From: Deltaproteobacteria bacterium
GTDB taxonomy: Bacteria > Desulfobacterota > Desulfobulbia > Desulfobulbales > Desulfobulbaceae
NCBI GenBank assembly: GCA_024280455.1
Contig: JAJRQC010000056.1
Coordinates: 1 to 64,000, forward strand
Reading direction: 5' to 3'
DNA length: 64,000 bases
Shown: positions 3,247 through 57,357 of the stretch, one piece after another
Layout of the letters: every line of letters starts with the position of its first letter
Position numbering within the stretch: position 1 is the stretch's first letter
Program-made: the position numbers and the translations under genes
The notes under the pieces: model-generated
The model's input: the letters and a program-made list of their open reading frames with translations, nothing else
The model's database searches: none
What the model was told of the DNA's origin: nothing

Positions 3247-3370
3247 GTCGGTGGCGTAGATAGCGAGTATGCGAGACTTCGAAAAGCCTCGCCACCGACG
3301 GCGGAAAGGTTATAATTTCTTGTAATTCCGTACAGTGCAAATGGCGTTTTTGCCTTTTTACGAGTTCATC
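3247..3370. repeat. Dispersed repeat, copy A
   Basis: A sequence of about 124 bp that recurs at 22908-23025 with high identity, and in part at 20654-20676 and (inverted) 60061-60112. It opens with GTCGGTGGCG, which pairs perfectly with CGCCACCGAC at 3290-3299, and ends CTTTTTACGAGTTCATC. It sits directly upstream of nrdJ and supplies a spurious N-terminal extension to that reading frame. Confidence 0.8.
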
Positions 3371-10260: not shown

Positions 10261-11856
10261 ATGAATCTCGTTTTTTTTACCTATGCCGGTCCGCCATTAA
10301 TCGGAGCCTTTATCGGCTACCTGACCAATAAGATCGCCATTCGCATGCTGTTTCGGCCCCTGAAACCATGGCATGTGCTGGGCATTCGTGTACCCATGAC
10401 GCCCGGGGTGATCCCGTCGAAACGGCATGACCTTGCCGTAAATATGGGAATCATGGTCGGCGAACATCTACTGACGGCCCGTGATATCGGAACCGCCCTT
10501 TCCATGGAACCATTCCAGGAACACCTGCATTCCCTTATCGACACCAGGGTCGGCGAAGTTCTGGATAGTGACCTGGGCCCGGTTCTTGACATAGTTCCCA
10601 AAAGATTCCGGGCCTATGCCAAGGTCGGTCTGCGTACCCTGAAATATCAGATGAAAGAGGGGGTTCGCAGCTATCTGCACAGCGAGACCTTTGCCGGAGT
10701 TTTTGAAGATGTTTTGACGCACCAGCTGGAACAGTACGGCGGACAGGAACTCAACGCTCTTGTTTCAACGGAGCAGCGACAACAGGCCTATGGAATCATA
10801 GATGATTTTTTACAAGGGCTTCTGGAGGGGCCGGGCGTTGAAGACTGGCTGACCGGCTATCTCGGCCAAAGGCTCCATGGAGCAGCCCAAAGTGGAAAAA
10901 ACGTCAGCGATCTGCTGCCGGAGCCGTTTATTGACTTTATTCAGACAACTTTAAAAAATCAGACCCCTGAGCTTCTGCATGGCCTTGCCGGTCTACTTGC
11001 CGAACCCCGGGTTCGTGACAAAATCATTGGTGCTGTTCTTGGTGGAATCGAACAATTTTTAAGTACCCTTGGGCCAATGGCTGCCATGGCCAAAGGGTTT
11101 ATCGACATGGACTCTCTGGATGGAAAGATCAGGGAATATCTTGTTGCCCATGAAGATGAACTGGAACAGTGGCTGCAGAGTCCGGAGGTGCAGGAACGGT
11201 TTGTCGCTGTGCTGCAGGAGCAGGTCAATAAATTCATACAGACCCCGGTTGCCGAACTTCTCGACCGGCTTGAAGACGGGCAGCTTGAAGATATCTGCCG
11301 TTCTTTGTCGGTGCAGCTGCTCGGCGCTTTGAGAACCAGGGGGACTGTTGAAACCCTGTCGTTATTGTTTCGTCAAAGCCTTGAGGACATGCTGGAACAG
11401 GGGCATCGATCGATGGCTGATATCGCAGGCCAACTGTTTCCCGGTGAGAACGGGCAGCAGATGCAGACAACAGTGCACAGAGAATTGCTGGCACTGTTTC
11501 GTTCCGAGGGCAGCAGCAGGATGATAGGCCGGATGATCGACTCGATGATCGACTCTCTGGCCCGGCATCCTGTCGGCATCCTGGCCCGCCTGATGCCGGC
11601 GGGTGTGCGGAGCGGCATCACCGATTATATCGTCCTGACCGCAAATAGAATGCTGCTGAAGGAGGTCCCGGGACTGGTTCGGTCGCTTAATATCAGTCAA
11701 TTGGTGACCGACAAGGTGGACTCGCTTGATTTATTGAAACTTGAAGAACTGCTTCTCTCCATCATGGAAGAGCAGTTTAAGTATATTAACCTGTTCGGCG
11801 CCCTGCTCGGATTCTGTATCGGCCTGCTTAACCTTGTGCTTCTTCAGTTTATCTGA
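10261..11856 (+). CDS. DUF445 family membrane protein
   Basis: A 531-residue protein with hydrophobic segments at both ends (about 5-25 and 508-531) enclosing a long amphipathic, mostly helical interior. The N-terminal GAFIGYLTNKIAIRMLFRP and the TPGVIPSKR motif are hallmarks of DUF445 (YheB-like) proteins, here in the long form. Role unknown; a related Bacillus protein is linked to the spore/sheath envelope. The last codons and stop (CAGTTTATCTGA) coincide with the left edge of a dispersed repeat, so the final residues may have been supplied or altered by that repeat. Confidence 0.8.
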   Translation: MNLVFFTYAGPPLIGAFIGYLTNKIAIRMLFRPLKPWHVLGIRVPMTPGVIPSKRHDLAVNMGIMVGEHLLTARDIGTALSMEPFQEHLHSLIDTRVGEVLDSDLGPVLDIVPKRFRAYAKVGLRTLKYQMKEGVRSYLHSETFAGVFEDVLTHQLEQYGGQELNALVSTEQRQQAYGIIDDFLQGLLEGPGVEDWLTGYLGQRLHGAAQSGKNVSDLLPEPFIDFIQTTLKNQTPELLHGLAGLLAEPRVRDKIIGAVLGGIEQFLSTLGPMAAMAKGFIDMDSLDGKIREYLVAHEDELEQWLQSPEVQERFVAVLQEQVNKFIQTPVAELLDRLEDGQLEDICRSLSVQLLGALRTRGTVETLSLLFRQSLEDMLEQGHRSMADIAGQLFPGENGQQMQTTVHRELLALFRSEGSSRMIGRMIDSMIDSLARHPVGILARLMPAGVRSGITDYIVLTANRMLLKEVPGLVRSLNISQLVTDKVDSLDLLKLEELLLSIMEEQFKYINLFGALLGFCIGLLNLVLLQFI

Positions 11857-11879
11857 AAATCGAATTACGCAGTATTTCT

Positions 11880-11986
11880 GTAACTTCTCAATAACCGAGG
11901 TAATGACAAAACGTGTAGGTTGGGTTGAGGAACGAGACTCCAACCTACTTTTTACAACTTTACACCACTATTTATTGAGAAACTAC
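11880..11986. mobile_element. MITE inside a dispersed repeat
   Basis: A 107-bp element with imperfect 14-bp terminal inverted repeats (GTAACTTCTCAATA and TATTGAGAAACTAC, 12 of 14). It is flanked by the 8-bp direct duplication GTATTTCT at 11872-11879 and 11987-11994. The related repeat at 35241-35248 has the same sequence context with a single GTATTTTT and no element, which is an empty site. The interior carries a GTAGGTTGG / CCAACCTAC hairpin. GTAA ends and 8-bp duplications again suggest IS66-type mobilisation. Confidence 0.78.
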
Positions 11987-12031
11987 GTATTTCTAACGCA
12001 AGTTGTTGATTTTCAGTGTTTGTTGTGCCGT

Positions 12032-12380
12032 CCAGCCATGCTGGTTTATCCGAAAATCGCCCACGAAGTGATACCGCATCAGGCTATTTTCATCCTTGGT
12101 TGTGGCTGTGACGTTAAAAATCCTGGTCCAGCCATGCTGGTTTATCCGAAAATCGCCCATGAAGTGATACCGCATCAGGCTATTTTCATCCTTGGTTGTG
12201 ACGTTAAAATCCCGGAGTCTGCGCTTCGCTCCGCTACCTGGTCCAGCCATGCTGGTTTATCCGAAAATCGCCCACGAAGTGATGCCGATCCGGGCTATTT
12301 TCATAGTTTGTTGTGGCTGTGACCTGTACAATCTGGTCCAGCCATGCTGGTTTATCTGAAAATAGCCCACGAAGTGATCA
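12032..12380 (+). repeat. Tandem array of the CCAGCCATGCTGG repeat
   Basis: Four head-to-tail units start at 12032, 12128, 12243 and 12338; spacings are 96, 115 and 95 bp and the last is truncated. Each opens CCAGCCATGCTGGTTTATC and contains an imperfect palindrome, GAAAATCGCC to GGCTATTTTC. Unit 2 carries an extra CGGAGTCTGCGCTTCGCTC module. The whole unit is conserved, so this is not a CRISPR array. Related copies lie at 14636-14779, 35214-35443, 50456-50505 and 57162-57357. The rest of 11857-12660 holds only the MITE and no gene. Confidence 0.85.
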
Positions 12381-12660
12381 ATGGTCGTTTTCCAATACAA
12401 GAGGCCTATCCCTGTCGTCATCTATATAGGTATTTCCTATTTGCATTATCGTGACATGTGCGATATGTGTTGTTTTTGTTTTGATTTTAAATCGAATCCA
12501 TTAGGGGGAAGGATGATTTTCTGATAATTCCATGTTGCACCGGCCTCATCAACAAGAAAACGCCTCGATGGAATTGAAAACGACAGGTACTGGCGGGCAG
12601 CAAAATGCGATACTGAAGAAGTATAAGACAGTATTTTTTTCCAGTAGAACAGGGAGGCCG

Positions 12661-14043: not shown

Positions 14044-14640
14044 GTGATACTGCTTATTTTGCTGGCTGTGGCGGTGGTGGTAACACTACTTGTGTATAAA
14101 TACTTCTATTATCTTGATGCCTATTATTATACCGGTGGATTTTACTGGCTGTTCAACGTCAATAATCTGCAAACGGCCAACGTCGCAATATTCACTGAAT
14201 TCTTCAGCCCCATGAGTATTACCAGCGAAGCCTTACCGCAGATAATCCTCTCTAACCTTATTCAAAATTATTACCTGCCTTTCACAAAACCGATATTGGT
14301 TGCCGCCGTCACCGGCGCCTTTGGTCCGGGTCTTGGTTCCCTGTTCAGTTTCCTCGGGTTTTTCGTGGTCGGCTTGCTCTCTTACGGGCTGGGTTCATTC
14401 TTCTTCGGTGATATCCTGCCGTATATAAAACAGGGCGGACTTGAGCATTATCGAAAGATTATTATCCGTCCGGCAGCGATCATCTTTCCATTATTATTTG
14501 CCCTCCCTTTGATTCCTGTTTCCGTAGTCGCCATCGGCGGCGCGGCACTGAAAATTTCTTTCCGGGAAACAATTCTATTTATGTTGCCGGGGCTTACATT
14601 ACGGCTTTTTTGGCTTATGACATCTCAGCCGTTTCAATAA
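14044..14640 (+). CDS. VTT/TVP38-like membrane protein
   Basis: About 198 residues, starting at GTG, with four or more hydrophobic segments: 1-22, 78-95, 97-120 and 150-190. The GAFGPGLGSLFSFLG segment and the later PLIPVSVVAIGGAALKISF segment look like a VTT (SNARE-associated/DedA-like) domain, though divergent. It begins 33 bases after the iron-sulfur gene, next to an A8 run, with no convincing ribosome-binding site. The end of the upstream gene resembles a VTT N-terminus. Either a frameshift separated the two parts or this gene is translated by reinitiation. Its stop codon overlaps an inverted dispersed repeat. Confidence 0.5.
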   Translation: MILLILLAVAVVVTLLVYKYFYYLDAYYYTGGFYWLFNVNNLQTANVAIFTEFFSPMSITSEALPQIILSNLIQNYYLPFTKPILVAAVTGAFGPGLGSLFSFLGFFVVGLLSYGLGSFFFGDILPYIKQGGLEHYRKIIIRPAAIIFPLLFALPLIPVSVVAIGGAALKISFRETILFMLPGLTLRLFWLMTSQPFQ

Positions 14641-14779
14641 ACCAGCATGGCTGGACCAGGTAGCGGAGCGAAGCGCAGACTCCGGGATTTTAACGTCACA
14701 GCCACAACAGATAGCGTAGACTTCGAAGGATGAAAATAGCCTGATGCGGTATCACTTCGTGGGTTATTTTCGGATAAAA
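14636..14779 (-). repeat. Inverted copy of the CCAGCCATGCTGG repeat
   Basis: Read on the minus strand this is one unit of the 12032 array, with both optional modules present (CGGAGTCTGCGCTTCG and CGAAGTCTACGC). It therefore faces the left array across the iron-sulfur/VTT cassette. It overlaps the VTT stop codon and ends about 28 bases before the next gene. Confidence 0.85.
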
Positions 14780-20642: not shown

Positions 20643-20653
20643 GCAAATCGCGG

Positions 20654-20676
20654 TGTTGACTTTTTACGAGTCCATC
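20654..20676 (+). repeat. Fragment of the 3247/22908 repeat
   Basis: GTTGACTTTTTACGAGTCCATC matches the right-hand end of the dispersed repeat at 3247-3370 and 22908-23025. Only this end is present, 12 bases after the ackA stop. Confidence 0.55.
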
Positions 20677-22907: not shown

Positions 22908-23025
22908 GTCGGTGTCGTAGATAAGCGTAGACTTCGAAAAGCCTCGCCACCGACGGCGGAGCGGTTATAACTTTTTGTATTTCCGTACAGTGCAAATGGC
23001 ATTTTTGCCTTTTTACGAGACCATC
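22908..23025. repeat. Dispersed repeat, copy B
   Basis: A close copy of 3247-3370 that includes GTCGGTGTCG paired with CGCCACCGAC and ends CTTTTTACGAGACCATC. It lacks a short segment present in copy A between GTAGATA and GCGTAGACTTCGA. It lies between rhlE and the OmpA-like gene. Confidence 0.8.
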
Positions 23026-35213: not shown

Positions 35214-35443
35214 GAGTTTATCCGAAAATCGAATTGCGCAGTATTTTTAACGTAAGTCGTTGATTTTCATTGTTTGTTGTGCCGAAAAAGCATGGAGGTT
35301 TATCTGAAAATTGCCCACGAAGTGATGTCGTATCAGGCTATTTTCATCCTCGAAGTCTACGCTTATCTGGTTGTGGCTGTGACGTTAAAAACCCGGAGTC
35401 TGCGCTTCGCTCCGCTTATCTGGTCCAGCCATGCTGGTTTATT
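35214..35443 (+). repeat. Composite copy of the CCAGCCATGCTGG repeat
   Basis: This holds the leader module GAAAATCGAATTGCGCAG also found at 11855, an uninterrupted GTATTTTT site (35241-35248), one palindromic unit with both optional modules, and a terminal CCAGCCATGCTGGTTTAT. It is the empty-site counterpart of the repeat broken by the MITE at 11880-11986. Confidence 0.82.
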
Positions 35444-35757
35444 AATAAGAAATATTATTTATAATAAATAGATACGGTTTGAAAAATCAACAAAAAAATA
35501 TAATAGCCGATAACGCAGGTCCTTTGAATTCCCCAGAACAAATTTGGCCGTAGCTTGAAAAACATTGTGCTCCAGACCATCCTGATGAAATCTTTGGATA
35601 CATCGGCATATCTTTTGGTGTTTTGCGCTATTTTTGCTGTTCCTTTTGCCGGAGACTCGAGTTACAAAAAATCGTAAGCAATCATAGGGTATGTAACTCT
35701 GCGAAATGATACACCCATAACTTACAAAAAAATCTGCTGAAATAGAATCGTGAGCCC
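35444..35757. other. Intergenic ahead of trkH
   Basis: No gene is recognised. A 113-codon minus-strand frame spans part of it but overlaps the start of trkH and has no recognisable protein. GAGTTAC and GTAACTC near 35659-35698 form a short inverted pair. Confidence 0.35.
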
Positions 35758-56895: not shown

Positions 56896-57161
56896 TCTCT
56901 TCCTCCCCGTGGGCGAATGGATAAAGTACCAGTGGCGGTTTTTCCTGCACTGTTGTCTGTGGGATATCCGGTAGAAAAATCAACCGTACAGCGTCCCTTA
57001 TCTCTTTATACAGGGGGAAAGGGTACAAAGAGGTTACAAAAAGAGGGGGCAGAGATTTTTTTTGGGCTGTTTGGAAAAAGATGATCAGGAAGTCGGCGGC
57101 GGACCAGGATGATCATTTCTGCAGACACCACTGAAAGAACTGGATGCAACAGGAATTTTTG
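56896..57161. other. Region upstream of the giant gene
   Basis: This presumably holds the promoter for the surface-protein genes. No specific promoter, operator or gene was recognised. Confidence 0.3.
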
Positions 57162-57357
57162 ATAAACCAGCATGGCTGGACCAGATTTTTAACGTCACAG
57201 CCACAACAAAGGATGAAAACAGCCCGAAACAGCGTACTTCGTGGGCGATTTTCGGATAAACCAGCATGGCTGGACCAAGATTTTTAACGTCACAGCCACA
57301 ACCAAGGATGAAAATATCCTGATACGACATCACTTCGTGGGTTATTTTCGGATAAAC
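57162..57357 (-). repeat. Two inverted units of the CCAGCCATGCTGG repeat
   Basis: Read on the minus strand, two tandem units (about 57256-57357 and 57162-57258) show the palindromic core and CCAGCCATGCTGG junctions. They face the 50456-50505 copy across the giant gene. The remaining bases to 57437 carry the msrB leader. Confidence 0.82.

What the first reader, a model, noticed from the sequence alone, without database searches (positions are those of the whole stretch)
11872..11994. Filled-site and empty-site pair for a second miniature element
The 107-bp element at 11880-11986 is flanked by GTATTTCT on both sides and interrupts a longer dispersed repeat. The repeat copy at 35221-35280 has the same flanking bases joined through a single GTATTTTT. 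This internal comparison demonstrates insertion with an 8-bp duplication without any other genome.
Basis: seen in the sequence. Interest (0 to 1): 0.65.

Follow-up and report, generated by a model that had tools for sequence, protein, structure and literature searches.

The report
IS66-type mini-transposon in a dispersed repeat
A 107-base mini-transposon without genes jumped into one copy of a bacterium's scattered hairpin repeat and duplicated 8 bases of the target; related bacteria carry the full-size IS66-type transposon with the same ends, so it is a new member of a known kind of mobile DNA.

Summary
The 107-bp element (11880-11986) has 15-bp terminal inverted repeats (GTARYTTCTCAATAA) and is flanked by GTATTTCT twice. 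It splits a dispersed repeat whose copy at 35215 ff. is continuous through GTATTTTT. The genome holds five more copies or remnants, 13 empty copies of the repeat and a second filled one. The two filled copies share derived flanks, so they descend from one insertion; the 107-bp form equals the 168-bp form minus 61 bp. In 77 elements from relatives the duplication is 8 bp and no other length (43 perfect; shuffled pairs mean 0.66). Relatives carry 1777/1784-bp elements with the same ends, perfect 8-bp duplications and a single DDE_Tnp_IS66 gene of about 530 codons. It is therefore a MITE of the IS66 family, apparently ISBst12 group. That transposase is not in this assembly. The core is a GTAG-type REP, and a RAYT gene flanked by the same REP occurs in the genome. 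Insertion sites show a symmetric preference, GTTA-N4-[8 bp]-N4-TAAC (held-out z about 7), which a related species' version of the hairpin repeat matches exactly around its loop. New member of a known kind; the target preference and REP core are the less expected parts.

The parts
11872..11879 (+). left copy of the 8-bp target duplication GTATTTCT
   Evidence: sequence; 8-bp length confirmed over 77 elements
11880..11986 (+). 107-bp non-autonomous IS66-type MITE
   Evidence: autonomous relatives with the same ends L117/L118
11880..11894 (+). left terminal inverted repeat GTAACTTCTCAATAA
11915..11948 (+). GTAG-type REP palindrome forming the core (here a fused, shortened version)
   Evidence: the same palindrome occurs alone in the genome and flanks a RAYT gene; local hairpin in fold
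11927..11935 (+). junction of a 61-bp internal deletion relative to the 168-bp copy on C42, at the imperfect direct repeat GAGGAACGA/GAGGTACGA
   Evidence: comparison with C42:4009-4176
11972..11986 (-). right terminal inverted repeat GTAGTTTCTCAATAA
11987..11994 (+). right copy of the 8-bp target duplication GTATTTCT
   Evidence: sequence
11846..11879 (+). left part of the interrupted dispersed hairpin repeat; its TGA at 11854-11856 is the stop codon of the DUF445 gene 10261-11856
11987..12096 (+). right part of the interrupted dispersed repeat (continues as tandem units to about 12400)
35215..35350 (+). uninterrupted (empty-site) copy of the dispersed repeat; target octamer GTATTTTT at 35241-35248

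Best explanation
11880-11986 is a miniature inverted-repeat transposable element (MITE) of the IS66 family, apparently ISBst12 group. A single-gene IS66-type DDE transposase, seen in relatives but not in this assembly, recognises GTARYTTCTCAATAA ends and joins them to staggered cuts 8 bp apart, giving the 8-bp duplication. It prefers targets of the form GTTA-N4-[8 bp]-N4-TAAC. A version of this lies around the loop of the dispersed hairpin repeat, where the insertion took place. The two filled repeat copies in the genome (window C63, and C42) descend from one insertion that was duplicated with its repeat; the window copy then lost 61 bp between short direct repeats. Shown by sequence: ends, duplication, copies, empty sites, autonomous relatives, shared flanks, target preference. 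Inferred: that this transposase mobilised this copy, the order of events, and the cut chemistry.
For: Own-genome copies with the same ends at C170 (99 bp, perfect duplication GTACAACA), C42 (168 bp), C101 (172 bp), C76 (148 bp) and C12 (one end seen). 43 of 77 elements have a perfect direct repeat at exactly 8 bp; other lengths give at most 2, shuffled pairs mean 0.66 and max 5. Autonomous elements L117 (1784 bp, ATTCATCC twice) and L118 (1777 bp, CTTTCTTC twice) have perfect 15-bp ends and a 533/531-aa protein matching DDE_Tnp_IS66, E about 1e-18. The experimentally seen ISBst12-group ISDge4 has ends GTGACTACTCAGCA/GTAACTGCTCAGCA and an 8-bp direct repeat (PMC12898284). Target motif: score 4.20 at the true site v. 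2.22 elsewhere, T(-6)/A(+6) 65 of 98, held-out z about 6.9. Common descent of the C63 and C42 filled copies: shared derived flank (GTGCCGTCCAGCC, TTTTCAGTG) not seen in the empty copies.
Against: No close relative of the transposase was found in the window's own genome (0 tblastn matches); the IS66 gene on C156 has no such ends nearby. The transposase scores below NCBIfam's curated cut-off for IS66 (122-124 v. 180 bits), though above Pfam's. The MITEs share only their termini with the autonomous elements, so they are not simple deletions of them. Copies C76 and C101 have degenerate ends or duplications.
Confidence: 0.93

Rival explanations
1. The 107 bp is an original module of the dispersed repeat; the empty copies lost it by a precise deletion between the GTATTTCT repeats.
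For: The repeat is mosaic and its copies differ by indels; deletion between direct repeats would give the same empty form.
Against: The element occurs outside the repeat at unrelated sites with their own 8-bp duplications (C170; dozens in relatives). 13 of 15 complete repeat copies listed in this genome are empty.
Confidence: 0.03
2. The element is a REP/BIME moved by the RAYT (IS200/IS605-like) transposase.
For: The core is a GTAG REP; a RAYT gene flanked by inverted copies of the same REP is present.
Against: The 15-bp ends, the 8-bp duplication and identical ends on a DDE transposon belong to the outer element; many MITEs with the same ends have no GTAG REP. Y1 transposases are not known to make such duplications (background knowledge).
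Confidence: 0.03
3. The C63 and C42 filled copies are two independent insertions into the same preferred position.
For: In other genomes independent insertions at one position of a repeat are indicated: G061 (both orientations, 158/175-bp types, copy-specific duplications) and partly G005.
Against: The two copies share derived flank changes, and the 107-bp insert equals the 168-bp insert minus 61 bp apart from a few substitutions.
Confidence: 0.12

Closest known systems
IS66 family, ISBst12 group (e.g. ISDge4 of Deinococcus geothermalis)
   Same: 8-bp duplication, ends beginning GTAAC (11 of 14 bases shared with ISDge4's GTAACTGCTCAGCA), single transposase gene in the autonomous relatives (PMC12898284)
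   Different: The window copy has no gene; the transposase is longer (531-533 v. 449 aa) and diverged from the curated IS66 model
Bacterial MITEs (NEMIS/Correia, RUP, Nezha, MITEPsy1)
   Same: About 70-300 bp, inverted-repeat ends, no coding capacity, target duplication, near genes (PMC3733652, PMC3189936)
   Different: Different ends, different duplication length, IS66-type partner
GTAG- and CGTC-tagged REPs and RAYTs (PMC3733652)
   Same: The core GTAGGTTGGGTTGAGGAACGAAACCCAAC is a GTAG-tagged palindrome and flanks a RAYT gene; the 156-bp relatives carry a CGTC-type palindrome
   Different: Here the REP lies inside a DDE-transposon MITE, not alone

Membership tests
MITE | short element with terminal inverted repeats and no transposase gene | tested here: met
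   107 bp, 15-bp ends with 2 mismatches
MITE | target-site duplication | tested here: met
   GTATTTCT twice; family-wide exactly 8 bp
MITE | several dispersed copies in the genome | tested here: met
   six copies or remnants in G000; tens in G005 and G061
MITE | autonomous element with the same ends | tested here: met
   in relatives only: L117, L118; none found in the own assembly
IS66 family, ISBst12 group | DDE_Tnp_IS66 transposase in the partner element | tested here: met
   Pfam PF03050 68 bits, cut-off 23.1; NCBIfam IS66 model hit but below its cut-off
IS66 family, ISBst12 group | 8-bp direct repeat | tested here: met
IS66 family, ISBst12 group | single ORF (no tnpA/tnpB) | tested here: met
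   one 1.6-kb ORF fills the 1.78-kb elements
IS66 family, ISBst12 group | ends resembling ISBst12-group ends | tested here: met
   11 of 14 bases shared with one ISDge4 end
IS66 family, ISBst12 group | transposition of this element by that transposase | not testable with these tools
   needs an assay
GTAG REP (core only) | GTAG-tagged palindrome associated with a RAYT gene | tested here: met
   Y1_Tnp gene C167:40224-40589 flanked by inverted copies

The most novel reading that the evidence does not exclude
This IS66-type lineage selects a 24-bp symmetric target (GTTA-N4-N8-N4-TAAC) resembling its own ends (GTAAC...GTTAC), so it repeatedly enters the same point of dispersed repeats, and its MITEs act as carriers that spread REP palindromes of two unrelated superfamilies.
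Probability: 0.45. Interest if true: 0.5.

Novelty: new member of a known kind. Interest (0 to 1): 0.38.

Why it matters
It gives a filled/empty pair inside one genome and ties an orphan MITE to its transposase family through relatives. It also provides a sequence rule for where an IS66-type element inserts; the 2026 paper found here describes transposition of this family as insufficiently characterised (PMC12898284). The REP core suggests that MITEs may help spread REPs.

Tried and rejected
General hairpin-loop targeting: rejected, since apart from the hairpin repeat, target sites show no excess of strong stems; the signal is the GTTA/TAAC motif instead. Partner in the own genome: the IS66 gene on C156 has no matching ends. 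G041 1964-bp 'pair' and L243 1822-bp 'pair': ends match but the flanks are not duplicated (3 of 8; 2 of 8), not used. Rfam: nothing credible in 11700-12450. A group II intron-like 5' end suspected at the end of contig C12: no Rfam match. Linkage of MITE and flank variants in G005: inconclusive, r = -0.19 (one copy is misaligned by an indel), but all 9 MITEs lie in one orientation. Literature for IS66-type MITEs: no described equivalent found in the held library; Res. Microbiol. 2010 'Route 66' is cited there but was not read.

Full report
Check of the observation. The sequence at 11872-11994 is GTATTTCT, a 107-bp element, GTATTTCT, exactly as reported. The element begins GTAACTTCTCAATAA and ends TTATTGAGAAACTAC, inverted repeats of 15 bp with two mismatches. 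It splits a dispersed repeat. The copy at 35215 ff. is continuous...CGAATTGCGCA GTATTTTT AACGTAAGTCG.... Base by base, 31 of 34 positions agree on the left and 40 of 44 on the right, and the right match continues for about 110 bp.

Genome-wide. The window is contig C63 of a 4.15-Mb draft genome related to Desulfobulbaceae MAGs such as S143_11 and S145_10, judged by matching contig sizes of same-genus genomes. Further copies: C170 99 bp with GTACAACA on both sides; C42 168 bp at the same position of the same repeat (GTATTTCT/GTATTCAT); C101 172 bp (GGATTTAG/GGATTCGG); C76 148 bp with a degenerate end; C12 with one end. The interrupted repeat occurs in 13 continuous copies, five with the octamer GTATTTTT and eight of a second type, CGCGATGTTATGAACG or close variants; one continuous copy lies next to the filled C42 copy. 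The C63 and C42 filled copies share flank changes absent from the empty copies, and the 107-bp insert is the 168-bp insert lacking 61 bp between GAGGAACGA and GAGGTACGA. So these two are most simply one insertion, copied with its repeat, then shortened. The closest relative's orthologous locus lacks repeat and element.

Family in relatives. Exact ends occur in 21 of 146 related genomes, against almost none for the reversed control pattern. A longer form of the end was found in Desulfobulbaceae, Desulfobacteraceae, Candidatus Electrothrix gigas and several cyanobacteria. From all loci, 80 end pairs were collected; 77 had enough flank, and 43 have a perfect direct repeat at 8 bp. The count is 0 to 2 at all other lengths tested, and shuffled flank pairs give a mean of 0.66 and a maximum of 5.

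The partner. L117 (1784 bp) and L118 (1777 bp) have perfect 15-bp ends, perfect 8-bp duplications and one ORF of 533/531 aa matching DDE_Tnp_IS66 (E about 1e-18), but below NCBIfam's IS66 cut-off. A 2576-bp relative with a 54% identical transposase has a perfect duplication GATTCTTG. ISDge4, an ISBst12-group IS66 element seen to transpose, has ends GTGACTACTCAGCA/GTAACTGCTCAGCA and an 8-bp repeat (PMC12898284). The own assembly has no such transposase, so the mobilising enzyme was lost, lies in unassembled sequence, or acted before the copies diverged (inference).

The core. The centre of the element is a GTAG-tagged palindrome, GTAGGTTGGGTTGAGGAACG..., also found alone in this genome and many relatives and flanking a Y1 transposase (RAYT) gene in inverted orientation on C167. 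The 156-bp relatives carry instead CGTCATCCCCGC...GCGGGGATCCAG, which fits the CGTC superfamily of the same review (PMC3733652; assignment by eye). How REPs entered the MITEs is not known.

Target choice. In 49 sites outside recognised repeats, the bases at fixed distances from the duplication are biased: GTTA at -8 to -5 and TAAC at +5 to +8 (mean 4.20 of 8 matches v. 2.22 at control offsets; T(-6)/A(+6) 65 of 98). A matrix trained on half of the sites finds the other half with z about 6.9. The hairpin repeat of G005 and G002 reads GTTA-CGCA-[TGTTTTTT]-AGCG-TAAC, a full match, and is found with the MITE inserted there many times; the empty repeat copy in the window matches 5 of 8. In G061, insertions of two lengths and both orientations with copy-specific duplications sit at one position of another repeat, which indicates independent events. 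In G005 some composites share mismatched duplications (copying), while others combine nearly identical MITEs with diverged flanks (independent insertion or gene conversion), so both processes are likely. Palindromic targets in general are not preferred.

Verdict. A genuine, well-marked MITE insertion; a new member of a known kind, with a target preference and a REP core that deserve a note.

Noticed in passing
window 11846-12400, 14628-14778, 35215-35460, 57153-57356: Mosaic dispersed hairpin repeat (units with GAAAATC...GATTTTC or GAAAATCGCCC...GGGCTATTTTC stems, joined by TCCAGCCATGCTGG), often in tandem, in intergenic regions; no credible Rfam match in the stretch tested.
   Followed up: partly
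window 10261-11856: The stop codon TGA of the DUF445 gene lies inside the dispersed repeat (TTTATCTGA), so the repeat touches the last codons; in the closest relative the gene ends without the repeat.
   Followed up: partly
window 3274-3370, 20643-20676, 22929-23025: Another short repeat (97 nt, ends ...TTTTTACGAGTTCATC); a similar sequence lies behind the DUF445 gene in a related genome (L299).
   Followed up: no
L087 6261-6538 (own genome C12): A MITE copy is broken by a palindromic GGAGCCCGCCC...GGGCGGGCTCC element and then by sequence that looks like a group II intron start, at the contig end; no Rfam match at gathering score.
   Followed up: partly
L311 (own genome C167:40138-40793): RAYT (Y1 transposase) gene flanked by inverted copies of the REP that forms the MITE core.
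   Followed up: yes
L314-L343 (G061): Abundant dispersed repeat (GTAAGCGCTTCATTAAC...GATAACACCTCGGAATGTAAGCG; at least 41 copies) that serves as a recurrent target of the related MITE.
   Followed up: partly
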